Source: Aquipuribacter hungaricus (GTDB lineage: Bacteria; Actinomycetota; Actinomycetes; Actinomycetales; JBBAYJ01). Taken from it: a stretch of DNA of 64,000 nucleotides. The first letter of the stretch is position 1. The number at the start of each line of letters is the position of its first letter. The DNA is taken from contig NZ_JBBEOI010000004.1 in NCBI RefSeq assembly GCF_037860755.1, forward strand, positions 1-64,000, written 5' to 3'. Below, piece by piece: positions 11,116 to 44,508 of the stretch. The notes under the pieces were generated by a model. It was not told the DNA's origin, did not search any database, and worked only from the letters and a program-made list of their open reading frames with translations. The translations under genes and the position numbers were made by a program.

Positions 11116-11178
11116 ACGGCTCAGGACTTGCGCACGTTCCGCCCACCGAGCGTCACCGTCCGTGCCAAGCTGCCGGCT

Positions 11179-14256: not shown

Positions 14257-14347
14257 GGGGGTGGCCTTATGCATGCGCAACCGGAGGACTAACAGGCTCT
14301 CCGCCGTCGCCGAAGCCCGCCTGCTAGGCGCGACAGAGGTGCGCCCC

Positions 14348-15355: not shown

Positions 15356-15408
15356 GCCGCCTCCTGCTGTTCTTCCACCACAGCAACACGCCATGGCCAC
15401 GTGTTGAG

Positions 15409-24068: not shown

Positions 24069-24100
24069 GTGTAGTCCTCCCCGTCGCGCGCAGGGCGCGG

Positions 24101-24113
24101 TGTCAGCCTGACA
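24101..24113. promoter_or_regulatory. 13-bp inverted repeat in divergent promoter region
   Basis: TGTCAG-C-CTGACA is a perfect inverted repeat around one central base in the 183-bp gap between the divergent helicase operon and the SIR2 gene. It lies 33 bp upstream of the helicase GTG. It could be an operator for shared control; no regulator gene is adjacent, so this is inferred from symmetry and position only. Confidence 0.4.
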
Positions 24114-24251
24114 GTCTGGAGCAGCCAGGCGCGGCGTGACCGGTTTTCCGCACCTACCCGAACAGATGGATGGTGTCAGCAGTCGGTCGCCTGCTGTCCA
24201 GGTGCCAGGTAGCGTCGCGGCCACCACCGGGACCATCGAGGGAGACAGACC

Positions 24252-25853
24252 ATCGGCGCCGACCGCCTCGGGCAACTGCTCGCCCTCCGAGGGGACCTGA
24301 CGCGACTGGAGTGCCACGCCGTCGTCGTCCCCATGTCCGGGGACCTGGCCGTCACGACGCCCTGGCTCCCGCTGGTGGGTGCGCACGCCCCCCGGGCGGA
24401 CGGGCAGGGATGGCACCACCTCACGATGGAGCGCCCTCAAGGCTGGGGCACGGAGGACCGTGTGCTCCGGGCGGACAAGGTAGGCCGGCGTCAGATCTGG
24501 CTCGCCCGCACGGACGCCTGGGACAAGGACGGTGCCTGGGTGGCCGCGAGCCTCGTCCAGGCCATCGAGCGGGCGGCTGCCGAGCTGGTCGGCGTGACCG
24601 ACCGCGCGCTCCCACTGGTCGGGGTGCCGCTCGCCGGCTCAGGGGCAGGTGGGCTGGCGGAGCGTCGCGGGGAGGTGGTGGCGGCCGCCGTCCCGGCCCT
24701 CCAAGACGCCGCAGAACGGCTGGGAGTCGACGTGGCACTCGTCCTGTACGACGACCAGGACTTCGCCGCCGTCCAGGCGGCCCGGGTGGGCGCGCACGTG
24801 CCAGGCTCGGACGCCCTGACGCCTGTTGAGCTCGACCGGGCGGACGAGATGGGTCACAAGGCCGCCCGGGGGGAGCTGGTCCTCTTCCTCGGTGCCGGGG
24901 TCAGCATGGCCGCAGGCTTGCCGAGCTGGAGGGGCCTGCTGCACGAGCTGGCGGAGCGGGCGGAGCAGGACCCCAAAGAGCTGAGCTCGCTGGCACCACC
25001 AGACGCCGCGCAGATCCTGAGCGACATCTTGGGAGACGACTTCCACCAGTTCATGGCGCAGCGGTTCCGGCTCTCGACCTGCGCGCCGGCGCACATGCTG
25101 CTGGCGGGCCTGCGTACCGACGCCGTGGTCACGACCAACTACGACAACGGCTACGAGCTCGCATCCGAGAGCCTGCACCCGAAGGAGCACCCGCTCCGGG
25201 TCCTACCCCGCCAGCACGCTCAAGCGGGGTCACCGTGGCTGCTGAAGATGCACGGCGACGTCGAAGCTCCCAAAGACATCGTCCTCACGAAGTCGCACTA
25301 TCTGGACTACGCCGACGCACGCTCTCCCGTGACCGGCATGGTGCAGGCGCTCCTCATGACCCGGCACATGCTCTTCGTCGGGTTCTCCCTCGTCGACGAC
25401 AACTTCGCTCGTCTCGCTCACCAGGTCCGCCGCCTGATGCACGACGCGCACCCGCAAGGCCGAAAAGCGGGGACAGTGCTCGCGCTGCAGGCCGATAGGG
25501 CCAGGGAGCGGTTGTGGCGAGACGACCTCGATCGCGTGTGCCTGGCCGACGAGGACCCTGGTGTAGAGCCTGATCGCAGGGTCCTGGTGGCCGCGAGACG
25601 GCTAGAACTCTTCCTCGACCGGCTGTCCTGGTGTGCAGAGTCCGCCCGACACGGTCGCGAGGTGCTCCTCCTGGACGGTCGGTACGACGCCATGCCACGC
25701 ACTCCCGCGGAGACATCCCTTCGAGACAAGCTCAACGATCTTCGCGGCGAGGTGAGTGCCGACGAGCAGCAGACCGCCGCCTGGCACGTCGTGGAAGAGG
25801 CTCTCGCCACGTTGGGTGGACGGAACCGGGCCCCCGGCCCGGAACGGCGCTGA
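24252..25853 (+). CDS. Macro-like domain fused to SIR2-family NADase
   Basis: 534 residues if read from ATC 24252, 506 from the first canonical start, ATG 24333. The upstream part is included because it completes a macro-domain opening (LRGDLTRLECHAVVVPMSGDL) and because GAGGGAG sits 7 nt before the ATC; ATG 24333 has no such site. The macro-like part (about residues 10-175) continues with PLVGVPLAGSGAGG and VDVALVLYDDQDF. The SIR2 domain follows: FLGAGVSMAAGLPSW, VVTTNYDNGYE, KMHGDVEAP and LFVGFSLVDDNF, with the catalytic Asn and His kept. SIR2 effectors destroy NAD and macro domains bind ADP-ribose-type ligands. A sensor-effector fusion for abortive defence is inferred. It is divergent from the helicase operon. 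Confidence 0.8.
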   Translation: MGADRLGQLLALRGDLTRLECHAVVVPMSGDLAVTTPWLPLVGAHAPRADGQGWHHLTMERPQGWGTEDRVLRADKVGRRQIWLARTDAWDKDGAWVAASLVQAIERAAAELVGVTDRALPLVGVPLAGSGAGGLAERRGEVVAAAVPALQDAAERLGVDVALVLYDDQDFAAVQAARVGAHVPGSDALTPVELDRADEMGHKAARGELVLFLGAGVSMAAGLPSWRGLLHELAERAEQDPKELSSLAPPDAAQILSDILGDDFHQFMAQRFRLSTCAPAHMLLAGLRTDAVVTTNYDNGYELASESLHPKEHPLRVLPRQHAQAGSPWLLKMHGDVEAPKDIVLTKSHYLDYADARSPVTGMVQALLMTRHMLFVGFSLVDDNFARLAHQVRRLMHDAHPQGRKAGTVLALQADRARERLWRDDLDRVCLADEDPGVEPDRRVLVAARRLELFLDRLSWCAESARHGREVLLLDGRYDAMPRTPAETSLRDKLNDLRGEVSADEQQTAAWHVVEEALATLGGRNRAPGPERR

Positions 25854-28900: not shown

Positions 28901-29201
28901 GGCCCGCGGTGAGGAGCCGGTCCCGCTCCGTGGCGTCGAAGTCGCGGCCGTGCAGGTGACCCTCCGCCGCGGTGGCCAGGGCCTCCCGGAGCCGGTTGCG
29001 GAGCTCGGCGGCCGCGTTCTCCGTGAACGTGATGGCTGCGAGCCCGGCGGTCGAGGTGAGGTGCCCGGTCGCGAGCAGCTCCACCACCCGGTCGACGAGA
29101 GCGTGGGTCTTGCCGGTGCCGGCTCCGGCCTCCACGAACAGGACCTCGGCGACGTCGGTGCGGATGCGGTGGCGGGCGGCGTGGTCGGAGGGGTCGGTCA
29201 C
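25962..29201 (-). CDS. AddA-like helicase-nuclease (UvrD/RecB family)
   Basis: 1079 residues from GTG 29201, overlapping the AddB stop (GTGA). SF1A helicase motifs appear in order: Walker A EAGAGTGKTHAL near residue 26, LLVDEFQDTD, FVGDPKQSIYRFRGAD, TIHGAKGLEFP and LYVAATRAEDHLV. A C-terminal RecB-type nuclease is present (FLEGYIDLLVDS ... LTVLDYKTDRAV, with the Asp, Glu and Lys ligands). AddAB complexes process double-strand breaks and also degrade foreign DNA ends. The gene order addB-addA is the usual one. Actinobacteria mostly rely on AdnAB or RecBCD, so this pair may be a laterally acquired or defence-associated copy; that is inference. Confidence 0.88.
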   Translation of the reverse strand: MTDPSDHAARHRIRTDVAEVLFVEAGAGTGKTHALVDRVVELLATGHLTSTAGLAAITFTENAAAELRNRLREALATAAEGHLHGRDFDATERDRLLTAGHDLDDAVLTTLHGFASRILADAALEAGLPPGFSVAGALAGSDGAERSWEDFLDALLDDGAIREHLLRALTLGLTIDRLADVATALGASWDRLRDRPLVDRPAPPIGVEEIAAPLRRALRDPDAWPDDKLAAHLRSTVAPLLNDLTGLTDPLDLLERLTTVNLPSGNKGTGLDWARAGLDKQAIVADLKEADAARAAVLQTVGAAATEALTARVQDWLLAESERRRDTGELDYHDLLVLARDVLRDDPEVRARLHARWPALLVDEFQDTDRLQVEIAYLLAGDPGGLGSDWSQTQVEGARLFFVGDPKQSIYRFRGADVTLFNAVGARHAAGPRLEVNFRSVPGVLTAANTAFRTLFDPGDGIVYADLLPSRTAVDDVPPVLLLGGPQAGVKAKDLRLAEATHLADVMVRAKGRWQVRDGRPARYQDMAVLLPTRASLPALERALQERQVPYRIESRSLVWGTDAVRGLVTLLQAVDDPADEVALLASLRHPGLACSDVDLVTWRAAGGRWSLFADVPAGLEGHPVAAALATLRGWHDQRWWVPVNQLLDAITRELRLVELTTVEDRPRDHWRRLRFLVDQARAWCDSGGSGLGRFVAWAVRQIAEDADVLETVVPEPDDDAVRILTIHGAKGLEFPITMVAGLGSIVTRQDTVLWTDDGPQIRLKTGLLETSGYAQAVTQEKLARRQEDIRLLYVAATRAEDHLVLGCYHSPPKGAEAQRSSAQQLWGLLADEGIARRELQPPNGAPAVPSPAEPAHLAVAHDPLPDRVVFLEGRADLLEDLATRVATSPTSLTVAAADPEPDKEAPEDIAPVVRRGSSRGAAIGTATHRVLELLPSLTAATTAQVAGLSRLACAEADIPDLESDVAGRVWSALESPSLTEALTDDARALREVYLVVRDADRFLEGYIDLLVDSKDRGLTVLDYKTDRAVTAEEVAAKQARYGPQLDAYARAVEQVTGTAPSSTGLVFARPGGRLPENP

Positions 29202-32200
29202 AGGGTGGCCTCCGGGTCGACGACGCGATCAGCGGCGGGGTGGGTGGCGGGGTCAGCGGCGGGCTCGGGGTCGACGAGCGTGGCGTAGGGGCGGACCGGG
29301 GCCGCGGTGCGGAGGCGGGTCCAGGCCTCGGCGCGCCCGGTGGGGCAGACCCGGTCGAAGGGGCAGTAGGTGCAGTTCTCCCAGCCCTGCCTGTTACTCC
29401 GCCACGACTCGGGGCCGGGGTGGGCGGGGTATACGCCGTCGCGGATGCCCCCGACGGTGACGTCGAGGACCTCCAGCAGGCGCCGCTCCTGGTGGGCGCC
29501 GACCGGGCCGCCCCGCTGCAGGGCGCCCTGCTCGACGAACCAGAACCAGGCCTGCACCGCCGCCTCCGGCAGCCCCTCGAGCTGGCGGGCGGCGAGGCCG
29601 TACAGCAGCAGCTGGAGCTTCTTGCCGCGGTCGACCAGGTCGGCGGCCTCGTCCAGCGACGGGTGCTTGGGGATGGCGTCGTAGCCGCTGCCGCTGCCGG
29701 TCTTGTAGTCGATGACGACCAGATCACCGTCGTCGGTGCGGTCCACCCGGTCGATGGAGCCCGTGAACGGCACTTGTCCCTGACGGGGCAGGGTGACGAC
29801 GAGCGGGTCGGCTCCGTCGCGTCCGAAGGCGGCCTCGGTCGCGACCGGGGTGGAGCGGCGGGAGCGCCGCAGGTCCGAGTCGACCGCGAGGATGCGGAGC
29901 AGGGTCCGCCGCAACCGGGACAGCTGCGCCGCCCACAGAATTTCGCGACCGGTCAGGCCCCGCTGGGTGAGGTCGGCGGCCTTGGCCTCCAGCAGCGCGA
30001 CAGCCTCGGCGACGTCCTCCGGGGTCCACTCCTGCTGCGGGTCCAGGCCCGCCGTGCCGTCCTCGGGCAACCGGCTGCGGACCAGCGTCTCCAGCACGTC
30101 GTGCACCAGGGTGCCCTTGTCTCGGGCGTCGATGGTGTCGCCGGCGCCGCGGTCCTCCAGCGGTCGGACCCGCAGGACCGTGCCGAAGAGGTGCTGGGCG
30201 GGGCAGGTAGCCCAGACCTGCAGCTTGGTCGCCGACAGGTGCGCGTCGACCCCCGCCCGCAGCTCCGCGGGGAGGGCGTCCACGCCGCCGGACCAGGCGT
30301 CGAAGCTGCCTGCCCGACGGCTCCGGGCTGCCTCCAGGCCGCGCTGGAGCCGGGGGTCGGCGGCGGCGAGCGCGTCCACGTCCCCGTGCAGCGCGGCGGC
30401 GACGTCGAGCTCCTGCAGGTTCAGCCGTGTGGTCGCACCCCGGAGGGAGGCCTCGAACGACGGCGGGCAGGCGAGCCAGGGCGCGTCGACGATGTCGCCG
30501 TCCAGGGCCGCGGCGGTCACGGTGCTGCCGTGCAGGCGGCTCGCCTCGGCGAGGAGCCAGGGGGAGGCGAACTGGCGTCGCTGCGAGCGGGGGTCGGCCC
30601 GCGGGTAGGACAGCCGGACCTCACCGGAGCAGGCCAGGGCCGCCGCCCACCGGGTCCGCTCGACGACCCGGCGGGAGGCCACCGTGGCCAGCGACGGCGA
30701 GAGCGCGGTCCGGTCGTCGTCCCGCAGCAGCGGGTTCTCCCGGCGTCGGGCCGGGAGGGCGTCCTCGGTGCAGCCGAGGACGAGCAGCAGGTCCAGGTCG
30801 GCCCCGGTGAAAGACGCCACCGGGGCAAGGAGGAGCCCACGGCCCAGGGTCGTCGCGCTGCGGACCCCTGAGCCCAGGGCGTCCTCCAGCTCCGACCTCA
30901 GGGCGGCGTCGCTGAAGGGGGTGGGGGTGGTGGACACCGCGCGCAGGCTGTCGAGCACGGCGTCGCACGCGGCCTGCTCGAGCGCGACCTCGGGGGAGTC
31001 CGACCCCTCGCGGGCGGACCAGCCGTCGACCTGCGCGCGGGTGCCCATGACCCCGCGCACCAGGACGACGAGCGCGTCGCTCGCCTCGCGCCAGCCGGGA
31101 GCGGCGTCGACGGCGGTGACCAGGGCGTCGAGGCGCTGCACCTCGACCAGCAGGCTCTCTGCGTCCGCGACCTCCCGGTCGAGGCGAGCGGTGTCCGCCC
31201 CCTCGGTGAGGGCGCGGGCGCGCAGCTCGTCCGCGTGCCGGGAGAGCCGCTGCTGCCACTGCGCCGGCCCCCGGGAGACCCCGGCCTCGCGAGACACCCG
31301 CTCCCAGCGGGTCACCGGCAGCCGCCGACCGTCGCCGTCCACGCGGGGACCGTCGGACATCCACCGCAGCAGGTCCGCCCGGGGCAGGCCGCGGGCGTGC
31401 AGCGCCATGAGGCCGGTGAGGGCCCGGCCGGTGAGCGTCTGGGCGAGGTTCCGGTCCCCCGTCACGTGGTGCGGGAGGCCGGCGGCCGTGAGCTGCTCGG
31501 ACAGCAGCCGGGTGTAGGGCTCGGGGGAGACGTAGGCAATACCGATCCGCTCGGGCCGGCACCCGTGCTCCTGCAGGTGCGCCACCGCGGCGCGGACGGC
31601 GATCCTGACCTCCTCCTCCGGATCGGGGGCCAGCGTCACGGCCGTCACCGGGGAGGCCGGGGACGTCGGCTCCGCCCCGAGCCACTCCAGGGTCCCGGGG
31701 TGGGCAGCCGGGGCGATGACGACGGTCAGGCGCGCCCCGAACGCGTCCAGGAACGACCGCTCGTCGGGCCGCAGTGGACCGGCCGCCACGAGGACGACCG
31801 GCGGCAGCGGGTCACGGGAGGCCACGGCGGCGGCGAGCGCCATCACCTCCGGCCCGGTCAGCAGGCCTGCGATCTGCGACCGGTAGGCGGTGTGCAGGAG
31901 CCGCACCTCGTCGCCGCGAGGGCTCAGCGCGGCCTGGCCCGGGCCGACCCTGGCGTCGTCGAGCTCGGTGAACGCCCCAGCGAGCAGGTCGGCGGTCGCG
32001 CGTTGGCGTCGGGCGGCCGCCACCAGCGGTGAGGTGGCCGCGGCGGCGAGCATCTCTGCGACGGCCCGGCGCCGGTCGAGGGCGGTCAGCGGGCGGCGGG
32101 CGGGGCCCGGCCCGAGGGCGAGCTCCACCGTGCAGAGGCGCTCCGCCAGCTGCGGCAGAGAGCCGAACCGCACGTTGGCCCACCCCCGCGGCCCGGCCGA

Positions 32201-32359
32201 CCCCCGGCGCAGGGTGACCCCCGCCAGCGAGGTCGGCACCACGACCTCCACCGGGGCGAGCGGGTCGCCCGCCTGGGCTGCGGTGACGGCCCGGCCCAGC
32301 GCTGCGGCGAGGCTCCCACCGGCCTCGGGGCGGATGACGGTCCCGCGGGAAAAGGCCAT
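29198..32359 (-). CDS. AddB-like PD-(D/E)XK nuclease with Fe-S cysteines
   Basis: 1053 residues from ATG 32359, with no clear Shine-Dalgarno site. The N-terminal and middle parts follow the AddB/RexB helicase-like layout, but the first ATP-binding loop is degenerate (RPEAGGSLAAAL instead of G-x-x-G-x-G-K-T). The C-terminal nuclease domain has the Fe-S staple cysteines typical of AddB, one in WATCPAQHLF and three in CTYCPFDRVC, around the catalytic FTGSIDRVDR ... LVVIDYKTGSG. It is coupled to the AddA gene by a 4-bp overlap. The protein should form a heterodimer with AddA, with AddA as the motor. Confidence 0.85.
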   Translation of the reverse strand: MAFSRGTVIRPEAGGSLAAALGRAVTAAQAGDPLAPVEVVVPTSLAGVTLRRGSAGPRGWANVRFGSLPQLAERLCTVELALGPGPARRPLTALDRRRAVAEMLAAAATSPLVAAARRQRATADLLAGAFTELDDARVGPGQAALSPRGDEVRLLHTAYRSQIAGLLTGPEVMALAAAVASRDPLPPVVLVAAGPLRPDERSFLDAFGARLTVVIAPAAHPGTLEWLGAEPTSPASPVTAVTLAPDPEEEVRIAVRAAVAHLQEHGCRPERIGIAYVSPEPYTRLLSEQLTAAGLPHHVTGDRNLAQTLTGRALTGLMALHARGLPRADLLRWMSDGPRVDGDGRRLPVTRWERVSREAGVSRGPAQWQQRLSRHADELRARALTEGADTARLDREVADAESLLVEVQRLDALVTAVDAAPGWREASDALVVLVRGVMGTRAQVDGWSAREGSDSPEVALEQAACDAVLDSLRAVSTTPTPFSDAALRSELEDALGSGVRSATTLGRGLLLAPVASFTGADLDLLLVLGCTEDALPARRRENPLLRDDDRTALSPSLATVASRRVVERTRWAAALACSGEVRLSYPRADPRSQRRQFASPWLLAEASRLHGSTVTAAALDGDIVDAPWLACPPSFEASLRGATTRLNLQELDVAAALHGDVDALAAADPRLQRGLEAARSRRAGSFDAWSGGVDALPAELRAGVDAHLSATKLQVWATCPAQHLFGTVLRVRPLEDRGAGDTIDARDKGTLVHDVLETLVRSRLPEDGTAGLDPQQEWTPEDVAEAVALLEAKAADLTQRGLTGREILWAAQLSRLRRTLLRILAVDSDLRRSRRSTPVATEAAFGRDGADPLVVTLPRQGQVPFTGSIDRVDRTDDGDLVVIDYKTGSGSGYDAIPKHPSLDEAADLVDRGKKLQLLLYGLAARQLEGLPEAAVQAWFWFVEQGALQRGGPVGAHQERRLLEVLDVTVGGIRDGVYPAHPGPESWRSNRQGWENCTYCPFDRVCPTGRAEAWTRLRTAAPVRPYATLVDPEPAADPATHPAADRVVDPEATL

Positions 32360-32609
32360 GGGGCGGAGGCTAGCGATCGGGCGAGGGCGGGTGGTCGGTC
32401 TCATGCAGATCAGACGTAGGGAGAGGCGTTTCCAACTGAGTCCGCGCGAGCTCGCTTACGACACCCTGCTCGCCCGAGCCTCCGCCATGTGCACGGTGGA
32501 CTGCTCGGGTGAGCGTCATGACGAGAAGCGCCTGACGGCGAAGACACCGGCGTGGGCGTAACAGTGTCCTGCGTCTCGTGTGGTCGCAGCTCGGTGGCGG
32601 TACCAGCGC

Positions 32610-33527: not shown

Positions 33528-34022
33528 CTACGGTCCGTCCAGCGCCTGCTCCCACAACTCGGCCATCTCGGCGCCGAACGCAACCAGCAGCACCGTCTCC
33601 ACCGCAGTCGTCGCCCCGCGCAGCGCCCCGACCGACACGCGTGCCGCCTCCTCGGCCGGGTAGCCGTAGACGCCCGTCGAGATGGAGGGGAACGCCACCG
33701 ACCGGGCGCCGACGTCGTCCGCCCGCGCGAGCGCCGCCGCGTACGCCGAGGCGAGCGTCACCGCGTCCTGCGGCCCCCGGTACTTCGGGCCGACGGCATG
33801 GATCACCCAGCGGGCGGTCGCGAGGTCGAAGGCCGGTGTGACGACGGCCTGCCCGGGCGGGCAGGGGGCCAGCGCGCGTGAGGCGGCCAGCAGCCGGGGT
33901 CCCGCCGCGGCATGAACGGCACCGTTCACACCGCTCCCGCCGCGCAGCGACCGGTTGCCGGCGGTCACGACCGCGTCGACGCTCTGCTGGGTGATGTCGC
34001 CCCGGACGACGAAGATCCTCAT
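33528..34022 (-). CDS. Macro domain protein (ADP-ribose binding/hydrolysing)
   Basis: 164 residues from ATG 34022, which overlaps the stop of the REase gene (ATGA). A complete single macro domain is visible: VVRGDITQQSVDAVVTAGN at the start, the phosphate-binding SGVNGAVHAAAG loop, RWVIHAVGP and the second loop FPSISTGVYGYP. The pattern is that of OARD/MacroD-type enzymes, which remove ADP-ribose from proteins or nucleic acids or hydrolyse O-acetyl-ADP-ribose. The usual catalytic Asp/Asn positions are broadly conserved. It is coupled to a restriction-type nuclease, and a decayed relative lies at 38.5 kb. Confidence 0.9.
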   Translation of the reverse strand: MRIFVVRGDITQQSVDAVVTAGNRSLRGGSGVNGAVHAAAGPRLLAASRALAPCPPGQAVVTPAFDLATARWVIHAVGPKYRGPQDAVTLASAYAAALARADDVGARSVAFPSISTGVYGYPAEEAARVSVGALRGATTAVETVLLVAFGAEMAELWEQALDGP

Positions 34023-35431
34023 TCGGCGCCGCCAGGTGCCGACCGAGACCTGTCCGGCGGGTCGTCGGGGGACCCGATCCAGTCGCAGCTGGGGCAGCCG
34101 TGGCGAGGAGGGTCGGGGAGGACGACGCAGCCGCCCAGGATGACGTCCGGCGGCGGCGGGCCGGCCGGCATGCCGTACATCACCCGGAGGAGTGGGGAGT
34201 GCCCGCATCGCGGGCAGGTGAGCTCGTCCTCGTCCACGTCCACGTCCGTGACCATCTCTTCGGCCAACGCCTGCTCGTCAGCGAGGTCACGCAGCTCGGT
34301 GGCCGTGAACGGGTAGGTCCAGCCGATGCTGTCCCGCCCGACGAAGAGTTCGACCCCTTCATCGGTGACCAGGACGTTGCCGTCGAACTCGTGGTCGGCG
34401 TACAGGACGTCCTCCAGATCGTCGGCGCGCTCGAGATCGAACGCCTCGAGCAGGTCCACCTCGTCGTGGATCACGTCCTCGGCGTAGCGGAGCAGGTACT
34501 CCCGCGACGTCACCTCCTGGTCGAGGAAGAGACGCGGGTCCAGCGACGTGAACCTGTCGGTCCGCCGCAGCAGCCGCTGCCACACCTCGCCGACGGTGCG
34601 ACCGAGGGCCCGCTGCTCCGGCCGGTGCAGGGACTGCTGGTATTCCTCGTTGCCCGGGTGCAGGACGTGGAGGACACGGACCCGGTCGGCGCCCTCGGCG
34701 TGGTCCTGCTCGAGGGCATGGGCGAGCAGCTGCTGCCGGACCAGCTGGTAGACGGGCTCGTCCAGCAGCAGGTCGAACGGCAGCAGGTCCCCGCGGACCG
34801 GACCTTCCGGGTCGGCGACCGCGCGCTCGTACCGTCGCTCGCGGACCTTGTCCTTGGCGGGGTCAGGTCGCCGAAGCCGGTAGGACTCGGTGTACTTCCA
34901 CTCCACCAGCACGAGCTCCACCGCCCCGTCCCGCGCCCGGTGCAGGAAGGCGGCGTCGATGCTGGTGCAGCGGGCGCCGCGGACCCGTTGCCCGTCGGGC
35001 ACCTCTCCGAAGTAGTCCGTGGGCCCGATGTATTCGAAGGTGAGGTAGCGGCCGGGCTCGACCTGCAGCACCTCCTCGATGCCGAGCAGGTCGCCGAACG
35101 CTCGGACGACGCGTGCCGGGTCGTGCACCATCGGCATCGGTGCGTTGACGCACTGCACCTGCGAGGACAGCAGGTGGTTGCTTGGACCGTCGCCGACGCC
35201 GGCGTGCCACGGGATGTCCAGCTCGTCGAACAGCGCCAGCGCCGGCTCCCGGACCGCCTCGAGCAGCGAGTGCTCGGCGTAGGCGGCGGGGAGGCAGTAG
35301 TGGTGCTGCGTCGCGCTGGTGGTCCCGTTCTGGTGGACGTAGCCGGCAGGCAGCTTCGCCGCGAACGGCAGGGTGGCCGTGCGGGCCTTCCACGTCGCGG
35401 CGCGGACCTTCTCGTGCTCGGTGTATGTCAT
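34019..35431 (-). CDS. PGN_0703-type restriction endonuclease-like protein with zinc ribbon
   Basis: 470 residues from ATG 35431. The core resembles PGN_0703-family REases: NHLLSSQVQCVN, then the PD-(D/E)XK motifs CTSIDAAFLHR and ELVLVEWKYTESY, giving the Asp and the E-x-K pair near residues 177 and 195. A C-terminal zinc ribbon is formed by CPRCGHSP and HGCPSCDW. The gene has a promoter matching the PafBC/RecA-NDp damage motif directly upstream and a probably leaderless start. It overlaps the macro gene, so both should respond to DNA damage. Target DNA is unknown. About 25 residues of a relative survive as a relic at 38.9 kb. Confidence 0.75.
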   Translation of the reverse strand: MTYTEHEKVRAATWKARTATLPFAAKLPAGYVHQNGTTSATQHHYCLPAAYAEHSLLEAVREPALALFDELDIPWHAGVGDGPSNHLLSSQVQCVNAPMPMVHDPARVVRAFGDLLGIEEVLQVEPGRYLTFEYIGPTDYFGEVPDGQRVRGARCTSIDAAFLHRARDGAVELVLVEWKYTESYRLRRPDPAKDKVRERRYERAVADPEGPVRGDLLPFDLLLDEPVYQLVRQQLLAHALEQDHAEGADRVRVLHVLHPGNEEYQQSLHRPEQRALGRTVGEVWQRLLRRTDRFTSLDPRLFLDQEVTSREYLLRYAEDVIHDEVDLLEAFDLERADDLEDVLYADHEFDGNVLVTDEGVELFVGRDSIGWTYPFTATELRDLADEQALAEEMVTDVDVDEDELTCPRCGHSPLLRVMYGMPAGPPPPDVILGGCVVLPDPPRHGCPSCDWIGSPDDPPDRSRSAPGGAE

Positions 35432-35586: not shown

Positions 35587-36279
35587 TCAGCGCTTCCGCC
35601 CGTACACCTGCGACGGTCGGCCCACGGTCCCGCTCGACATCCGTGACGTCGCCCGGAGCTGCGGCTCCATCAACCGACGGAAGGTGTCCTTCTGCTGCAC
35701 CCGGCTCAGCACTGCCTCGTGGACCTGGCGCAGCTCGGTCATCGTGAACGCGGGACCGAGCAGCGTGAACGGGTCGGGGTGGCGGGTGTAGTGCCGCTGG
35801 AGCTCCTCCCGCGCTCGCCGCACGATCGCACCGTGGTCCCAGAGCAGGGACGGCGGTCGCGAGGCCGGGACCAGGCGTAGTCCTCCGTCCGAGGCCTCCA
35901 CGGCAGGAAGGACGGCCTCCAGGGGCAGCGCCGCGAGGTGGGCCGCGCTGAGGACCCAGCCCCGGTCGTCGCGGTAGGGGTCGTCGAAGACGCCGATCTC
36001 GGTCGTCCGGGCGCGCTGGCGGATGCCGACCTTGGTCGCCAGCGATCGCATGACCGCGTCCTGGAGCCGCTCCCGCTCGTGGAGGAACGTGCCGGGCAGG
36101 GACCACGTCGCACGTCCGTCGGCGCCGTCCCGGCGCACCAGCAGCACCTGGAGCTGGAGGACGGGCTGGTCGGCGGCCGGGTCGGCGCGGGGGGCGACGG
36201 TCAGCACCGCCGTGTCGACCGCTACCGACGGACGGGGGAACGCAAGCAGGTCGCTGGTCGGTGCGGTGCCGGGAACCAC
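35587..36279 (-). CDS. nrtR: NrtR-type NUDIX/winged-helix transcriptional regulator
   Basis: 230 residues from GTG 36279, with GGAGG 5 nt upstream. The N-terminal NUDIX-like domain has a degenerate NUDIX box (WSLPGTFLHERERLQDAVMR), as usual in NrtR, which binds ADP-ribose rather than hydrolysing it. The C-terminal winged helix shows LGPAFTMTELRQVHEAV, then DTFRRLMEPQL and the closing GRPSQVYGRKR, the typical NrtR signature. NrtR represses NAD-biosynthesis genes and is released by ADP-ribose. It is divergent from the ARPP-1 gene, with AT-richer symmetrical DNA between them, so it probably controls the ARPP-1/phosphatase operon and itself. Confidence 0.82.
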   Translation of the reverse strand: MVPGTAPTSDLLAFPRPSVAVDTAVLTVAPRADPAADQPVLQLQVLLVRRDGADGRATWSLPGTFLHERERLQDAVMRSLATKVGIRQRARTTEIGVFDDPYRDDRGWVLSAAHLAALPLEAVLPAVEASDGGLRLVPASRPPSLLWDHGAIVRRAREELQRHYTRHPDPFTLLGPAFTMTELRQVHEAVLSRVQQKDTFRRLMEPQLRATSRMSSGTVGRPSQVYGRKR

Positions 36280-36299
36280 GGGGACCTCCGAGGGAAGCA

Positions 36300-36345
36300 G
36301 TTAGCGCGCTACCGCGTTATTAGAGGTTAGCGTTCGAGTAAGCGC
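36300..36345. promoter_or_regulatory. Putative NrtR operator region
   Basis: The 99-bp divergent gap contains a perfect palindrome TAGCGCGCTA (36302-36311) and a second GTTAGCG-containing copy about 28 bp further on, ending in GTAAGCGC. It is distinctly AT-richer than its surroundings. This suggests two regulator half-site pairs covering both promoters; the assignment to NrtR is by position only. Confidence 0.4.
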
Positions 36346-36378
36346 AGTCCTGATCCAACCATCGGAAGGTCGTGTCAC

Positions 36379-37125
36379 ATGTCCATCGTCCCCCTGCCCC
36401 GGCTGCACCTCGGCAGCCCCACCCACCGCGGCGGCCTCAGCGTCTTCCCCCGTCTGGGCCGCCGGGACCCCGGTCCGGGGTCTGTCCAGCGGCGGGGCCG
36501 TCGCCGTCGACGAGCGCGAGGTGCTCCAGTGGTCGGGGAGCTCGTGGCCCACAACCAGGGCGCGCAGCCTGCGCTCCTCCTGGCTGGCGAGCTGTTCGAG
36601 GGCGGCTGGCAGCACCGGGCCCTCGTGCACGACGTCGTGCTCGCCCCCGGCAACCTGGCCGTCGTGGTCGTGTCCCGCTACGACCGGGCCTACGGCCCCT
36701 CGAGCACCGGCACCCTCTTGCACCACCTGACGACCGTTCTGCCGAGCGTCCCCCCGTCGCCGGACGTGCTGGCGGGTCAGCGGGGTGTGCTGATCGGCAT
36801 CGGGGGGCAGCCGGCCCTGCTCGAGCTGTTCCCCGACCCGCGGTCGCTGCGTCGTCACCTGCCGGCGCTGATCGCGTCGGCTTGGCTGGACGCGGGGATG
36901 CGGCCGTCCGTCCCGACCCCAGGCCGTCAGGCGCGAGCGTTCGTCGCAGCACTGGCGGCATCGGGAGGCAGGCGCTTCCGGACGGTCTCCACCGTCGACG
37001 CGGTCGACGGCCGGGCCGTCGCCGGTGAGAGCGACCACGTGCTGGCCCGCGGGGTGCTGTGGCAAGACCAGCTGGCGCACCTGACGGTGCTCAACCCGCG
37101 CCACGACCTCATGCTGGCCGCGTGA
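36379..37125 (+). CDS. ARPP-1 domain protein with an internal compensated frameshift
   Basis: 248 residues from ATG 36379. The ARPP-1 family (ARG and rhodanese/phosphatase-associated protein) is recognised by the opening LHLGSPTHRGGLSVFP and by the later LVAHNQGAQPALLLAGELFEGGWQHR region, with HDVVLAPGN after it. Between them, residues about 25-47 are Arg/Gly-rich and out of character. Reading the other frame from 36452 to 36520 restores VWAAGTPVRGL and AVAVDERE, so an extra C in the CCCCC run (36447-36451) and a missing base near 36520 are likely. ARPP-1 is linked by gene context to NAD and ADP-ribose metabolism. The stop overlaps the phosphatase start (TGATG). Confidence 0.75.
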   Translation: MSIVPLPRLHLGSPTHRGGLSVFPRLGRRDPGPGSVQRRGRRRRRARGAPVVGELVAHNQGAQPALLLAGELFEGGWQHRALVHDVVLAPGNLAVVVVSRYDRAYGPSSTGTLLHHLTTVLPSVPPSPDVLAGQRGVLIGIGGQPALLELFPDPRSLRRHLPALIASAWLDAGMRPSVPTPGRQARAFVAALAASGGRRFRTVSTVDAVDGRAVAGESDHVLARGVLWQDQLAHLTVLNPRHDLMLAA

Positions 37126-37745
37126 TGACGCCCGGGACACCGCGGCTCACCCGCCTCAACGACCAGCTCTTCACCAGTGCCGACCTGCCGCAGTGGGACG
37201 GACGCGCCTGGTCCGCCGAGCTCGACCGCTGGGAGGCGCTGGGCATCACCCACGTGGTCGACAACCGCATCGAGGCGAGCGACCTCGACCTGCTGGCGGA
37301 GTACGCGCCGGCCATCACGTACCTGGAGAACGGCGCGGACGACGCCGGGCAGCGGATGCCCGACGCGTGGTTCGACCGCGGGGTGGACTTCACGCTGGAG
37401 GCGATGGCGGACCCGTCGGCCAAGGTCCACGTGCACTGCCACATGGGGATCAACCGCGGACCGTCCATGGCGTTCGCGGTCCTGCTCGCGACGGGTATGA
37501 GCCCCGCGGCTGGGGTACGGACTATCCGCGACGCCAGGCCGAGGGCGGCCATCGGGTACGCGGGGGACGCGCTGTCGTGGTGGCACCGGCGCTCGAGTGC
37601 CTCCGCGGTGCAGCGACGCCAGCAGCGGACACAGCTGCGCGCGTTCTGGGCGGCAAACCCGCACCACACTGTGCGCGTCATCCAGGAGGTCCGCGACGAG
37701 GAGATGCGCGGGCTGCTGGAGGCGGCTGCGATCGATCGGGGCTGA
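37125..37745 (+). CDS. Dual-specificity-phosphatase-like cysteine phosphatase
   Basis: 206 residues from ATG 37125 (GTG 37122 is possible), coupled to the ARPP-1 gene through TGATG. The catalytic P-loop C-x5-R is seen as VHCHMGINRGPS at about residues 104-115, preceded by the ITHVVDNRIE strand with the general-acid region nearby. The C-terminal ~60 residues are helical and charged. The ARPP-1 family is named for association with phosphatase-fold genes, and this pair fits. Substrate unknown; a phosphorylated nucleotide or ADP-ribose derivative is plausible from the NrtR neighbour, but this is inference. Confidence 0.83.
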   Translation: MTPGTPRLTRLNDQLFTSADLPQWDGRAWSAELDRWEALGITHVVDNRIEASDLDLLAEYAPAITYLENGADDAGQRMPDAWFDRGVDFTLEAMADPSAKVHVHCHMGINRGPSMAFAVLLATGMSPAAGVRTIRDARPRAAIGYAGDALSWWHRRSSASAVQRRQQRTQLRAFWAANPHHTVRVIQEVRDEEMRGLLEAAAIDRG

Positions 37746-38476: not shown

Positions 38477-38836
38477 TCAGCTCGGCATTCGGTGGACGAG
38501 CGCCACCAGCAGCACGACCTCGACCGCCGTTGTCGCCCCTAGCAGCGCCTCGACCGACACCCTTGACGCCGCGTCGGCGGGGTAGCCGTAGGCACCGGTC
38601 GAGATGGAGGGGAAGGCCACCGACCGTGCGCCGACCTCGTCAGCCCGCGCGAGGCTCGCCTTGTCCGCCGACGCGAGCGTGCTGCGTCCTCCGGTCCGCG
38701 GGAGGGGGCCGACGGCATGGATCACCCAGCGGACCGTCGTCAGGTCGAAGGCGGGAGTCATGGCCGCCTGTCCCGGCGGGCACGGCGCCAACGCCCGCGG
38801 TGCCTTCAGCAGCCTGGGTGCTGCCGCAGCGTGCAT
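38477..38836 (-). pseudogene. Truncated macro-domain gene (decayed paralogue)
   Basis: A frame of 119 residues that closely follows the intact macro protein at 33.5 kb: ALAPCPPGQA, WVIHAVGP, ADEVGARSVAFPSISTGAYGYP and VSVEAL. The first ~40 residues, including the VVRGDIT strand and the SGVNGA loop, are missing, a short stretch after HAVGP is altered, and the C-terminus runs into a different frame (LVALVHRMPS). Without the ligand-binding start it cannot be a functional macro domain. It lies next to a relic of the same REase gene that precedes the intact copy, so the whole pair was once duplicated or acquired twice. Confidence 0.75.
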
Positions 38837-39963: not shown

Positions 39964-40083
39964 CGCACCCCCGGACATGGCTCTCCGCCGGGTCGTACGG
40001 AGCCGACCCGGCGCTCGGGGCCGTATCGGTGAACCCGTCCCAGGTGCCCACCTGTGTCCCCCGGTCCCTGCTATCACCTCCTG

Positions 40084-41011
40084 GTGAGGGGAAGCGTCCG
40101 GTCGCTGCGCGACGCGACAGTGCTCCTGACCGGCATGCTGCTCGGGGGGTGCGTGGTCGGGGTGACGATGTCGGGGGAGCCGGGGGAGGTCCCGGTCGCC
40201 TCCGCACCGTCGTCCGACACCTCGCCCGCCGAGCCGACCCGCTCGGCCATCCCGACCGGCGACGAGCCCACTGACGAGCCGACCGGCTCTCCGTCCGCGG
40301 CGCCGGAGGGGACGGTGGCCAGCGCGGCCGCGCTCGTCCCGGCCATGTCGCCCACCCCGACGCCGGCTCCGCCCCCGCCGGCACCTCCGCCCTCGCCGGC
40401 ACCCCAGCCGGACGCATGGGTCGTGGTCGACGTCATCGACGGCGACACCCTGGACGCCCGCCGCGACGGCGTGGTCGAGCGGGTGCGAGTGGTCGGCCTC
40501 GACACCCCGGAGCAGGGGCAGTGCGGGTTCGACGAGGCCGCGCGGCGCTCACCTTCCTCGCGCAGGACCGGCAGGTGCTCCTGACGCCCGGTGCCCGCGA
40601 CAGCCGGGACCGTTACGACCGGCTGCTGGCCTATGTGGACGTCGTCGAGGACGCCGCGTCAGGAGCGACCCTGGACGCGGGACTCAGCCTGATCACCGAC
40701 GGCTACGGCATCGCCCGCTACGACTCCCGCGACGGCTACGGCGCCCACGCGAGGGAGGCGGAGTACATCGAGGCCGACGCCGGGTCACCGTCACGCGTCG
40801 ACTGCGGCGCCGCACCTGCCCCCCAGGTCGTACCGGCACCCGCAGGACCAGCCGCCGCCGGGTGCGACGCGGCGTACCCCGGCGTCTGCATCCCGCGGCG
40901 CCGCCGGATCTGGACTGCGGTGACGTGCCTCACCGCAGCTTCGCTGTCGTAGCCCCGGACCCGCACCGCTTCGACGCTGACGGGGACGGCCGCGGCTGCA
41001 CGTCGGGGTGA
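40084..41011 (+). pseudogene. Lipoprotein thermonuclease (SNase)-Excalibur gene with two frameshifts
   Basis: The product can be reassembled from three frames. GTG 40084 (or 40054) starts a lipoprotein signal with lipobox LLGGC, then a long Pro/Ser/Thr linker and the SNase opening VVVDVIDGDTLDA and RVVGLDTPEQG. One base is missing near 40541-40546, after which the second frame continues ALTFLAQDRQVLL, DRYDRLLAYVDV and DGYGIARYD. A second missing base near 40894-40900 leads to the Excalibur calcium-binding end, DLDCGD ... DPHRFDADGDGRGC, with stop at 41009-41011. As written the gene is broken. If the indels are errors, it encodes a complete surface-anchored thermonuclease. Confidence 0.75.
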
Positions 41012-41060
41012 CCACGGCCGGGGGCTGGTGGCGCTGCTGGAGGTGGGGCTGGCGGGCGTC

Positions 41061-41130
41061 TTGTGTCCGACCCCCTCGAGACGATGGTCGCCGTCGAGCG
41101 GAAGAGGGTGGTGGCTTGTCGTACCTGGAC
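41061..41130 (+). repeat. Diverged ~70-bp upstream repeat, copy A
   Basis: Begins TTGTGTCCGACCCC and ends GGCTTGTCGT plus nine bases. About 11 differences in 58 aligned positions from copy B at 42705, with a 1-bp gap in the middle. It starts with the same TGTCCGAC core as the damage promoters, but the -10 position reads GACGAT, so promoter function is doubtful. Confidence 0.55.
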
Positions 41131-41550
41131 ATGGCGCGGTCGCACGTCAAGGAGCTGGCGCGCGAGGCGTTCGAGCTGGCCGAGGTCGTCGTGGACCCCG
41201 ACGGCGACCTGGCGTTCCCGTTCGGGACTGCGGTGCTGTACGTCTCGGTCGTGACGGACGGAAGGCTGGTGCGGGTCTGGGCCCGGGCCGCGGACGGGAT
41301 CGCGGTCACCAAGCCGGTGCTCCGCGAGGTCAACGACGCCAACGCCTGGCTGGTCCTGGCGCGCGCGTGGATGCACGGCGGCGCGCTCATGATCGAGGGC
41401 TGCCTGCCCGTCGAGACGCTCCGTGCCGAGGACCTGCGCGCCCTCGTCTCCGAGGTCGGCGGGACCGCCGACCGCCTCGGCGCGCTGGTCGCCACCGTGC
41501 ACGGCGGGAAGGTGGCGCTGCCCGTCGGACCGGTGCCGGGGGCGGAGTGA
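41131..41550 (+). CDS. YbjN-like small protein
   Basis: 139 residues from ATG 41131; TTG 41116, with GAAGAGGG upstream, would add five residues but lies inside a repeat. The single alpha/beta domain opens with ARSHVKELAREAFEL, then FPFGTAVLYVSVVTD, RVWARAADGI, a LVLARAWMHGGALMIEG strand and a final helix VSEVGGTADRLG. This follows the YbjN / type III secretion chaperone-like fold, often linked to stress or protein handling in actinobacteria. No catalytic residues. Preceded by the repeat and the broken SNase gene. Confidence 0.65.
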   Translation: MARSHVKELAREAFELAEVVVDPDGDLAFPFGTAVLYVSVVTDGRLVRVWARAADGIAVTKPVLREVNDANAWLVLARAWMHGGALMIEGCLPVETLRAEDLRALVSEVGGTADRLGALVATVHGGKVALPVGPVPGAE

Positions 41551-41565
41551 TGACTCTGTGCGGTC

Positions 41566-42186
41566 GTGTTTCACATCCTGAATGACAGTATTCAGGATGT
41601 GGGCCAGGCTGCCCCGGCCCTGCTGCCCGCCCTGCGCAGCGTCGCGCAGGCCCGGGTCCTGACCCGGCTGTTGCTTGCGCCCGAGGTGACCTGGACCGTG
41701 CCCGCCCTCGCCGAGGCCGCGGACGTGTCCCAGCCGACCGCGAGCCGCGAGGTCCGCCGGCTGAAGCAGACCGGGGTCGTGACCGTCGACGGCGACCGGA
41801 ACCTCCGCTCGGTAGCCGTGGACACGAACGCGCTGCTCTACCCGGAGCTCGCCGGGCTGGTCCTCAAGGCCTTCGGGCCGGCTGCCGTCCTGGGCCCAGA
41901 GCTCGCCGCGGTGGACGGGGTGGAGGCGGCATGGGTGTTCGGCAGTTGGGTGCGCCGCTACCTCGGCGACCCGGGGTCCTCTCCGTCGGACATCGACCTG
42001 CTCGTGGTGGGCCGGCCGGACATGGACGAGCTCGCCGACGCAGTGACCCGGGCCGGGTCTCGGCTCGGGCGTCCTGTCGGTCTGTCGTTCCTCGCCCCCG
42101 GGGAGTGGGAGGACCCCCGGGACGGGTTCGTCCGTGACGTGCGTGACGATGCCCGGGTACCCGTCGCCCGGGTGAGCGGCCCGTGA
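41566..42186 (+). CDS. Winged-helix / minimal nucleotidyltransferase (MNT) antitoxin
   Basis: 206 residues from GTG 41566. The N-terminal winged HTH (VPALAEAADVSQPTASREVRRLKQTG) is followed by an MNT domain with the pol-beta signature G-S-x10-D-x-D, seen as VFGSWVRRYLG ... SDIDLLVVG, at about residues 124-147. MNT proteins adenylylate and neutralise partner HEPN toxins; the fused HTH would allow autoregulation. The stop overlaps the GTG of the next gene by 4 bp, and a HEPN domain follows. Confidence 0.83.
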   Translation: MFHILNDSIQDVGQAAPALLPALRSVAQARVLTRLLLAPEVTWTVPALAEAADVSQPTASREVRRLKQTGVVTVDGDRNLRSVAVDTNALLYPELAGLVLKAFGPAAVLGPELAAVDGVEAAWVFGSWVRRYLGDPGSSPSDIDLLVVGRPDMDELADAVTRAGSRLGRPVGLSFLAPGEWEDPRDGFVRDVRDDARVPVARVSGP

Positions 42187-42624
42187 GCCTCGACGACCTG
42201 CCGCGCAGCGGCCGGGTCGAGCGGGCGCCGGCCGGCCCCGCCTCGGCCCATGGACCGGCTCGCCGCCTGCGAGCAGCACCTGCGCAGCGCCGGCCTGCTG
42301 GCAGACGTCGATCCGGCCACGGCGTGCGCGGCCCTGTACGACGCCGCGCGCAAGGCCGTCACCGCCCACATGCTCGCCCGCGGGTACCGCGTCCAGAACC
42401 GGGCGGGCGCCCACGAGGCCGTCGGGCTGTACGCGGCGAGCGAGCTCGACGACCCGACGGGCAGCGTGGGGTGGTTGCAGGCCATGCGGTTGAAGCGGAA
42501 CCGCAGCGAGTACCACGACGTGCCCGTGGGCCGGCAGGAGGTGGCGGCCGACCTGACCCGTGCGTGGGGCATCGTCGCCGCCGTGCGCGCGGCGCTCGAG
42601 GAGCGGGCGGTGCCCGGCGAGTGA
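42183..42624 (+). CDS. HEPN toxin partner of MNT, apparently frameshifted near its start
   Basis: The uninterrupted frame starts at ATG 42250 (124 residues). The real start is probably GTG 42183, in a GTGA overlap with the MNT gene, encoding SLDDLPRSGRVERAPAGP, a typical HEPN opening. One extra C in the CCC run at 42247-42249 puts this out of frame with the rest. The HEPN domain shows helical segments ATACAALYDAARKAV and the RNase motif R-N-x4-H as KRNRSEYHD near its end. HEPN proteins of such pairs are ribonucleases. As read, the short form from 42250 could still fold. Confidence 0.72.
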
Positions 42625-42704: not shown

Positions 42705-42773
42705 TTGCGTCCGACCCCTCCGAGACGACGGCTTGGGCCGGTGGAAGGGGAGGGCGGCTTGTCGTGCACGGAC
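42705..42773 (+). repeat. Diverged ~70-bp upstream repeat, copy B
   Basis: Copy of the element at 41061. It begins TTGCGTCCGACCCC and contains the shared GGCTTGTCGT near its end. It lies upstream of the NERD-helicase gene, in a 231-bp gap that otherwise holds only a purine-rich stretch. The -10 position reads GACGAC. Confidence 0.5.
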
Positions 42774-42855
42774 GTACGAGTTCTGCCGCATGACGCTCGA
42801 TGGACAACTGACGGGGCCAGACTGTCGCGATGACGCCCTGGGGGAGGCAGACGAC

Positions 42856-44508
42856 ATGACTGCGCGCTCGGTGCCGGAGGTGCCCGACTTCGCGTCCGAC
42901 GCGGAGCGGGTGGTGTGGGAACGACTGCGCGAGCAGCTCCCGGACGACGCCGTCCTGTTCGCCAACCGCCGGTTCACGGACGCTGACGGCGACTGCGAGG
43001 CCGACCTGCTGGTGGCGTGGCCCGATGTGGGGTTCGTCGTCGTCGAGGTCAAGGGCGGCCACGTCAGCCTGGACCGGGACGGCCGGTGGCATCAGAGCGG
43101 CAAGGGCGGCGACCACGGCGTCGACCCCGTGCGACAGGCACAGCGGTGCCGCTACGCCCTGCGCGGCCACCTCGACGGCAACCCGACATGGACAGGCGGT
43201 CGGATCCGGACACAGCACCTCGTCGCGTTCCCGTACTCACGCGTGGCGCCAGACGTGTCAACCAGCGACTGCCCGCGCTGGATGGTCCTGGACCGGGACG
43301 ACGTCACCCACCTGGCGCGTCGGCTCGCAGACGCGGTCGACGCCGGTGCGGACCGGAGCCTTCCGACGCCCGGGACCGGTGAGGTCGCCCAGCTCGTCGA
43401 CTGCCTCGTCGGCCGCCCGGTCGCGCAGCGGGACCACGTCGCCGGGGAGGTCGAGGCCCGCGGGGCCGCGGTGGACCTGCTCACCCAGCGGCAGGCGGCT
43501 GTCCTCGACCACATCTCCCTGCTGCCGCGGGTGGAGGTCAGGGGCGGGGCGGGCAGCGGTAAGACGTGGCTCGCCGTGGAGCAGGCACGTCGGTTCGCCG
43601 CCGACAAGATGCGGGTCGCACTGCTGTCGTACTCGCGGGGCCTGGCGATGTACCTGCGCGAACGCTGCGACCTGCTGTCCGCCCGGCAGCGCCCCGCCTA
43701 TGTCGGTACCTTCCACGGTCTCGGTCTGGAGTGGGGCGCGAAGCCGGGTGCTGACGACGACCCGGTCTACTGGGAGGACGAGCTGCCACGCGCGATGACC
43801 GCGCTGGCCGCCGACCTGCCCGACGGTGAACGATTCGACGCCCTGGTGGTGGACGAGGGTCAGGACTTCGACGACACCTGGTGGCCGGCCCTGCTGGCCG
43901 GTCTGCGCGAGCCCGGTCGGCTCGTGGTGTTCGCCGACGAGGGGCAGCGCGTGTTCGCCCGCGCGGGACGCCCGCCCGTGGACCTCGTCCCGATCCCGCT
44001 GGACGAGAACCTCCGGAACACCAGGCAGATCGCCCAGGCCTTCAGCAGCCTCGTGCCCACCCAGCAGCGCATCCGCGGCGGCGACGGCGAGGCGGTCCGC
44101 TTCGTCCCGTGCAGCAGCGAGGACGCGCTCGACACGGCGGACGAGATGGTCGACGAGCTGCTGGAACGCGTGGGCTACGAGCCGCACCACGTCGCGCTGC
44201 TCACCACCGGCCGTCGGCACCCGGTGCAGCGGGAGGGTCAGGAGGAGGGGCACGACGTCTACTGGCGTGACTTCTTCGACGCCCGGTCGACGTTCTACGG
44301 GCACGTCCTCGGGTTCAAGGGGCTCGAGCGGCCGGTCGTGGTGCTGGCCGTCAACGGCTTCGGCAGCGGTGACGGCGCCGAGCGGGCCCGGGAGAAGCTG
44401 TACGTCGGTCTGTCGCGGGCGCGCGACCTGCTGGTCGTCTGCGGCGACCCCCGCCTGATCCGTTCGGCCGGTGGGGACGGGGTGGCACGTCGGCTGGGGA
44501 TCAGGTGA
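42856..44508 (+). CDS. NERD domain and UvrD/Rep-like helicase protein
   Basis: 550 residues from ATG 42856, with GGGGAGG 8 nt upstream; the open frame before it is not coding. The N-terminal NERD nuclease-like domain has ERVVWERLREQL, CEADLLVAWPDVGFVVVEVKGG (Asp and E-x-K) and a WHQSGKG segment. The helicase part has Walker A RGGAGSGKTWLAV near residue 230, Walker B LVVDEGQDFDD near 331, FADEGQRVF, NLRNTRQIA and the final KLYVGLSRARDLLVV. NERD-helicases are known single-gene defence candidates and appear in plasmid and phage restriction contexts. It stands alone before the toxin-antitoxin genes. Confidence 0.9.
   Translation: MTARSVPEVPDFASDAERVVWERLREQLPDDAVLFANRRFTDADGDCEADLLVAWPDVGFVVVEVKGGHVSLDRDGRWHQSGKGGDHGVDPVRQAQRCRYALRGHLDGNPTWTGGRIRTQHLVAFPYSRVAPDVSTSDCPRWMVLDRDDVTHLARRLADAVDAGADRSLPTPGTGEVAQLVDCLVGRPVAQRDHVAGEVEARGAAVDLLTQRQAAVLDHISLLPRVEVRGGAGSGKTWLAVEQARRFAADKMRVALLSYSRGLAMYLRERCDLLSARQRPAYVGTFHGLGLEWGAKPGADDDPVYWEDELPRAMTALAADLPDGERFDALVVDEGQDFDDTWWPALLAGLREPGRLVVFADEGQRVFARAGRPPVDLVPIPLDENLRNTRQIAQAFSSLVPTQQRIRGGDGEAVRFVPCSSEDALDTADEMVDELLERVGYEPHHVALLTTGRRHPVQREGQEEGHDVYWRDFFDARSTFYGHVLGFKGLERPVVVLAVNGFGSGDGAERAREKLYVGLSRARDLLVVCGDPRLIRSAGGDGVARRLGIR

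What the first reader, a model, noticed from the sequence alone, without database searches (positions are those of the whole stretch)
35587..37745. NrtR, ARPP-1 and cysteine phosphatase: an NAD/ADP-ribose gene set inside a defence island
NrtR senses ADP-ribose and normally controls NAD synthesis; ARPP-1 and phosphatase-fold proteins have been linked to NAD metabolism by gene context. Here they lie between a macro-REase pair and a damage-promoter gene, and within reach of a SIR2 NADase. This may be a recovery or signalling arm for NAD-consuming defence. Symmetrical DNA between nrtR and ARPP-1 suggests direct control.
Basis: partly seen in the sequence, partly recalled or inferred. Interest (0 to 1): 0.7.

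Follow-up and report, generated by a model that had tools for sequence, protein, structure and literature searches.

The report
Stripped-down ADP-ribose-sensing defence operon
An actinobacterium carries a reduced version of a predicted but untested gene set that senses and processes ADP-ribose; its genetic switch looks intact, two usual enzymes are missing or damaged, and in relatives the set often sits beside an enzyme that destroys NAD, which hints at how the two may work together.

Summary
The three genes are real: nrtR (35587-36279, -), ARPP-1 (36379-37125, +) and a dual-specificity-type cysteine phosphatase (37125-37745, +). REase-ARP and Macro genes follow nrtR on the same strand, so the "macro-REase pair" probably belongs to the same unit. 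This toolkit was predicted as ARG-centred ADP-ribose systems (PMC9503650). Relatives show NrtR <- operator -> ARPP - ARG::phosphatase fusion. The window departs from it: no ARG, an unrelated stand-alone phosphatase in its place, and an ARPP that lost ~48 residues including the conserved cysteine and has two compensating frameshifts. This NrtR looks local, not an NAD-synthesis regulator. The SIR2 idea gained support: SIR2 NADase genes lie within about 5 kb of ARPP/ARG in 7 of 29 ARPP genomes, and once an operator lies at the SIR2 promoter. In the window itself SIR2 is 10 kb away. Verdict: an ARG-less, partly decayed variant of a known kind.

The parts
35587..36279 (-). nrtR: Nudix-domain (degenerate Nudix box) plus winged-helix repressor; the only NrtR_WHD protein in the genome
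   Evidence: PF21906 9.8e-11; single copy; intact in alignment with 24 relatives; PDB 3gz5 (MutT/nudix family protein) 1.3e-15
36301..36320 (.). operator 1, TTAGCGCGCTACCGCGTTAT
   Evidence: best match in 4.3 Mb
36339..36358 (.). operator 2 (weaker), TAAGCGCAGTCCTGATCCAA; tandem sites also occur in relatives
36379..37125 (+). ARPP-1, damaged: ~48 residues missing between VVV and SRYDRAY, including the conserved C-V-E-x-x-R-W; no cysteine left; conserved Gln (GGWQHR) kept
   Evidence: PF20208 4.4e-25; alignments; models
36465..36520 (+). stretch of ARPP read out of frame between two compensating 1-base shifts; the next frame reads PVRGLSSGGAVAVDERE, matching the family's V-x-E
37125..37745 (+). 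stand-alone dual-specificity-type cysteine phosphatase, ATGA-coupled to ARPP; sits where relatives have ARG::R-P
   Evidence: PF00782 9.3e-7, VHR 4.7e-9; relatives elsewhere not beside ARPP
34019..35431 (-). REase-ARP, PD-(D/E)XK nuclease with EWK motif; downstream of nrtR on the same strand
   Evidence: PF22558 1.8e-38; EWK
33528..34022 (-). Macro domain (O-acetyl-ADP-ribose deacetylase-like), 4-bp overlap with REase-ARP
   Evidence: PF01661; NF001664 6.8e-54, under that model's cut-off
41008..41550 (+). TY-Chap1 predicted chaperone, a component of the published system; membership here inferred
   Evidence: PF22551 4.7e-20
42733..44508 (+). NERD-UvrD helicase; homologues in 13 of 45 ARPP loci; membership here inferred
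24333..25853 (+). SIR2_2 NADase-like protein (catalytic TTNYD and KMHGDVE kept); same island, not same operon

Best explanation
A locally regulated ADP-ribose (ADPr) response unit, derived from the ARPP/ARG systems of actinobacteria by loss of ARG. NrtR binds two tandem palindromes in the 99-bp divergent promoter and represses both arms: nrtR - REase-ARP - Macro leftwards and ARPP - phosphatase rightwards (shown: conserved sites, gene order; inferred: binding, repression). Free ADPr, released when an infecting phage ADP-ribosylates host molecules or when an NADase fires, occupies the degenerate Nudix domain and lifts repression (inferred from known NrtR proteins). The Macro enzyme then removes ADPr adducts in place of the missing ARG, the phosphatase dephosphorylates ADPr-derived products, and the REase attacks DNA as a second line (inferred from families). 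ARPP here has probably lost its chemistry, so this copy is partly decayed or in transition.
For: Families present. Canonical NrtR <- -> ARPP - ARG::R-P: ARG::R-P follows ARPP in about 27 of 44 loci and a divergent nrtR precedes it in 25 relatives. Operator in those 25 relatives: summed best mismatches 98 v 172.5 shuffled, minimum 163. The window's two sites are the only ones in 64 kb, the first is the best in the genome, and nrtR is single, so regulation is local. No ARG in the window; the genome's only ARG is on another contig and no ARG::R-P match is found. ARPP cysteine segment deleted. REase and Macro are components of the published system.
Against: No biochemistry. A 155-bp gap separates nrtR from REase-ARP, so co-transcription is not shown. 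Macro standing in for ARG and the phosphatase's substrate are guesses; the phosphatase's relatives lie in unrelated contexts. A decayed second Macro copy (38477-38836) and the damaged ARPP also fit simple decay. The single-base indels could be assembly errors.
Confidence: 0.65

Rival explanations
1. Relic: the unit is a decaying remnant of a full NrtR-ARPP-ARG::R-P system. NrtR and operator survive, the enzymes are broken or gone, and nothing useful is made.
For: ARPP deletion plus two frameshifts, decayed second Macro copy, ARG absent, two congeneric genomes without ARPP.
Against: nrtR, both operators, Macro, REase-ARP and phosphatase look intact; the ARPP reading frame stays open through three lesions and keeps ATGA coupling to the phosphatase.
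Confidence: 0.25
2. Signalling or recovery arm of a SIR2 NADase defence: SIR2 cleaves NAD to ADPr, ADPr derepresses the NrtR unit, which clears ADPr products or limits damage.
For: SIR2 homologue within about 5 kb of ARPP/ARG in 7 of 29 ARPP genomes, one of them a fragment; also beside NrtR-ARG::R-P without ARPP in L096, L124, L128 and 5 kb off in L129; in L124 an operator with 1 mismatch lies between divergent ARG::R-P and SIR2; genome-level co-occurrence P 0.0009; catalytic Asn and His kept in the window SIR2; other island genes (GmrSD, MNT, EcsC) occur in 0 of 45 loci, SIR2 in 7.
Against: In this window SIR2 is 10 kb away with AddAB-like genes between and no operator. Some SIR2 relatives have no ARG nearby. 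Defence islands cluster genes anyway; NERD helicases (13 of 45) are linked even more often. The L124 SIR2 lacks the motif His (KINGD).
Confidence: 0.3
3. Ordinary NrtR regulation of NAD synthesis that happens to sit here.
For: NrtR is known for that role (PMC6800001).
Against: Single nrtR whose operator has no other site above background in 4.3 Mb (the others have 3 mismatches, no more than the control); motif unlike the mycobacterial GTTTTCGA-N7-TCGAAAAC.
Confidence: 0.05

Closest known systems
ARG-centred ADP-ribose conflict systems with Nudix TF, R-P phosphatase, ARPP, REase, Macro, TY-Chap (Iyer et al. 2022, PMC9503650)
   Same: NrtR-type regulator, ARPP, rhodanese-phosphatase-superfamily enzyme, rapidly evolving REase, Macro and TY-Chap1 all present in or near the unit
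   Different: No ARG; phosphatase is a separate, different subfamily; ARPP lacks the conserved cysteine; the authors selected systems without coupled sirtuins, whereas relatives here often carry a SIR2 NADase-like gene
NrtR regulators of NAD metabolism (e.g. MsNrtR, PMC6800001)
   Same: Nudix + winged helix, palindrome between nrtR and its target genes
   Different: Different operator sequence; target is an ADPr unit, not nad genes
SIR2-domain NADases ThsA, DSR2, KomC
   Same: Catalytic Asn/His motifs; 5e-14 to ThsA and DSR2 chains, 3.8e-13 to KomC
   Different: Own N-terminal part of about 140 residues; no known Thoeris or DSR2 partner was tested for

Membership tests
ARG-centred ADP-ribose system | ADP-ribosylglycohydrolase (ARG) gene in the unit | tested here: not met
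ARG-centred ADP-ribose system | Nudix or WYL transcription factor | tested here: met
ARG-centred ADP-ribose system | R-P superfamily phosphatase, fused or adjacent | tested here: met
   DSP-type, adjacent to ARPP, with CX5R
ARG-centred ADP-ribose system | Accessory REase / Macro / TY-Chap | tested here: met
ARPP-1 | Profile match over the curated cut-off | tested here: met
   89 v 27 bits
ARPP-1 | Conserved glutamine | tested here: met
   Q in GGWQHR
ARPP-1 | Conserved cysteine | tested here: not met
   segment deleted; no Cys in the protein
NrtR | Nudix domain plus winged-helix domain | tested here: met
NrtR | Palindromic operator at own divergent promoter | tested here: met
NrtR | Release by ADP-ribose | not testable with these tools
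   needs EMSA or ITC
NrtR of NAD synthesis | Operators at NAD biosynthesis genes | tested here: not met
   no further site above background in own genome
SIR2 NADase (ThsA/DSR2-like) | SIR2_2 domain with catalytic Asn and His | tested here: met
   window TTNYD, KMHGDVE
SIR2 coupled to this operon | Same operon or shared operator in the window | tested here: not met
   10 kb away, no site

The most novel reading that the evidence does not exclude
Actinobacteria have a two-armed immune module in which a SIR2 NADase and an NrtR-repressed ADP-ribose-processing operon work together: NADase activity makes ADP-ribose, which is the inducer of the clearing (and possibly limiting) operon, with NrtR also controlling the SIR2 gene in some strains. 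The window would be an ARG-less version of it.
Probability: 0.3. Interest if true: 0.75.

Novelty: new variant of a known kind. Interest (0 to 1): 0.5.

Why it matters
The ARPP/ARG systems have been predicted only from gene order. This work adds a concrete, testable operator (TTAGCGCA-N4-TGCGCTAA), shows a natural ARPP that has lost the cysteine proposed as its catalytic residue, and finds recurrent linkage to SIR2 NADase-like genes, which the published survey screened against. If the linkage is functional, it would bear on how cells sense and survive, or time, NAD-depleting defence.

Tried and rejected
Viral contigs for ARPP: none confirmed. Plasmids for the phosphatase: none; phages: one unannotated metagenomic phage hit, 39% over 68%. 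PDB fold search with a confident ARPP model (pLDDT 95): no clear match, best Foldseek E 0.22 and best Z 4.5 to F1-ATPase barrels, so no function was read from the fold. An HMM seeded on window gene 37811 drifted to antisense ORFs and was dropped. NrtR as NAD-synthesis regulator: rejected. Operator as a feature only of NrtR-bearing loci: mostly, but three closely related MAGs have perfect sites upstream of ARPP with no NrtR alongside. That the SIR2 tie is one inherited event: the tree needs at least 4 changes on well-supported branches, though the label is not clustered beyond shuffles. The '8 of 10' positional figure counted G176, which has ARG::R-P but no ARPP; the corrected ARPP count is 7 of 9 SIR2-bearing genomes. 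Literature search for NrtR-SIR2 coupling found none in the held library.

Full report
Observation. The window lies in contig C4 of a 4.3-Mb, 547-contig, high-GC actinobacterial genome (relatives named). Pfam confirms NrtR, ARPP-1 and a DSP-type phosphatase at the stated coordinates. The phosphatase falls a little below Pfam's cut-off, but its P-loop is intact and its best solved match is VHR. REase-ARP and Macro lie downstream of nrtR on the same strand with a 4-bp overlap between them. TY-Chap1 and a NERD-UvrD helicase follow on the right; SIR2_2 lies 10 kb to the left.

What it is. [quoted passage not shown] PMC9503650 described ARG-centred systems with Nudix TFs, R-P phosphatases, ARPP, REases, helicases, Macro and TY chaperones, predicted to undo viral ADP-ribosylation. 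I fetched 40 actinobacterial ARPP loci and others from whole genomes. In about 27 of 44 loci with a called ARPP it is followed by an ARG::R-P fusion, and in 25 a divergent nrtR precedes it; several loci are cut by contig ends. ARPP is rare: 14 of 394 genomes of the class. Two congeneric genomes lack it.

How the window differs. There is no ARG here; the genome's only ARG is on contig C8, not fused to R-P, and an ARG::R-P profile finds nothing in this genome. The phosphatase is not the fused R-P type; its nearest relatives (41-49%) lie in contexts with no ARPP, NrtR or ARG detected. ARPP has lost about 48 residues around the conserved C-V-E-x-x-R-W and has no cysteine; it keeps the conserved glutamine. 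Two single-base shifts around 36470-36515 cancel each other: the adjacent frame encodes the family-typical V-x-E stretch. An intact relative models at pLDDT 95 and the window copy at 82, with low confidence around both lesions. A second Macro copy at 38477-38836 is a frameshifted, truncated duplicate with 79% nucleotide identity. Decay is therefore part of the picture, although NrtR, Macro, REase and phosphatase look sound.

Control. In relatives' nrtR/ARPP gaps I read by eye a palindrome TTAGCGCA-N4-TGCGCTAA, then tested it. Summed best mismatches over 25 relatives were 98, against a shuffled mean of 172.5 and a minimum of 163 in 300; because the motif came from some of the same sequences, this overstates significance. 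For the window, which was not the source, the test is cleaner. The only two sites with <=4 mismatches in 64 kb are both in the 99-bp gap (random expectation 0.75 per 64 kb). With a degenerate form the site at 36301 is the best in the genome, and the remaining hits do not exceed the backwards control. nrtR is single copy and its Nudix box is degenerate across the family. So this NrtR most likely senses a ligand, presumably ADPr as shown for other NrtRs (PMC6800001), and controls this locus only.

SIR2 link. Homologues of the window SIR2 are uncommon: 20 of 394 genomes at E<=1e-10, 13 of them strong. Of 29 ARPP-bearing genomes 9 have one, and in 7 (one a fragment) it lies within about 5 kb of ARPP/ARG; G176, searched in the same call, has ARG::R-P with TY chaperones in ARPP's place and also a SIR2 next to its nrtR. 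In an unbiased class sample, 4 of 8 SIR2 genomes also have a full-length ARG::R-P (20 of 295 genomes; P 0.0009), 3 of them within 7 kb. Arrangements vary: convergent, co-directional or divergent. The tree needs at least four label changes on supported branches, so the link arose or was lost repeatedly. In L124 an operator with one mismatch lies between the divergent ARG::R-P and SIR2 genes. Island clustering is a confounder, but other genes of this island (GmrSD, MNT, EcsC) occur in 0 of 45 ARPP loci, against 7 for SIR2 and 13 for the NERD helicase. That control is small, and the positional probabilities assume independence and count G176 among the ARPP genomes.

Mechanism. Shown: gene order, conserved operators, missing ARG, damaged ARPP, recurrent SIR2 and helicase neighbours. 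Inferred: NrtR repression, ADPr induction, Macro standing in for ARG, phosphatase acting on ADPr products, REase as effector. Whether SIR2 feeds this unit in the window is open.

Verdict. A new variant of a known kind; the most interesting lead is the SIR2-NrtR tie in relatives, not the damaged copy here.

Noticed in passing
window 38477-38836 (-): Decayed second copy of the Macro gene at 33528-34022, 79% identical DNA with frameshifting indels and no N-terminus.
   Followed up: partly
window 42733-44508 (+): NERD-UvrD helicase whose homologues occur within 10 kb of ARPP in 13 of 45 loci, more often than SIR2.
   Followed up: partly
window 25962-32404 (-): AddAB-like helicase-nuclease pair between SIR2 and nrtR; the same pair lies beside ARPP in L037 and L040 (Nocardioides), possibly an insertion hotspot for such islands.
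   Followed up: partly
window 40054-40952 (+): Thermonuclease-like secreted protein that seems split by a frameshift (second half continues in another frame).
   Followed up: no
window 41566-42624 (+): HTH-nucleotidyltransferase followed by a HEPN-like small protein: looks like an MNT-HEPN toxin-antitoxin pair next to TY-Chap1.
   Followed up: no
window 11128-24440: Defence-type genes: PLD-helicase-DUF3427, EcsC, two GmrSD proteins, and a 1785-aa helicase matching PDC-S37/MkoC models; lower GC (0.67) at 14-20 kb.
   Followed up: no
L048, L051, L052 upstream of ARPP: Perfect operator TTAGCGCAAATCTGCGCTAA with no nrtR beside it; the neighbour is an alpha/beta hydrolase, so NrtR may act in trans in these MAGs.
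   Followed up: partly
L031, L034 (Nocardioides) upstream of ARPP: A co-directional ~235-aa protein with no Pfam match replaces nrtR; possibly a different regulator.
   Followed up: no
L124:8949-8968: Operator-like site between divergent ARG::R-P and SIR2 genes, suggesting NrtR controls a SIR2 gene there; that SIR2 has KINGD in place of the KLHGD histidine motif.
   Followed up: partly
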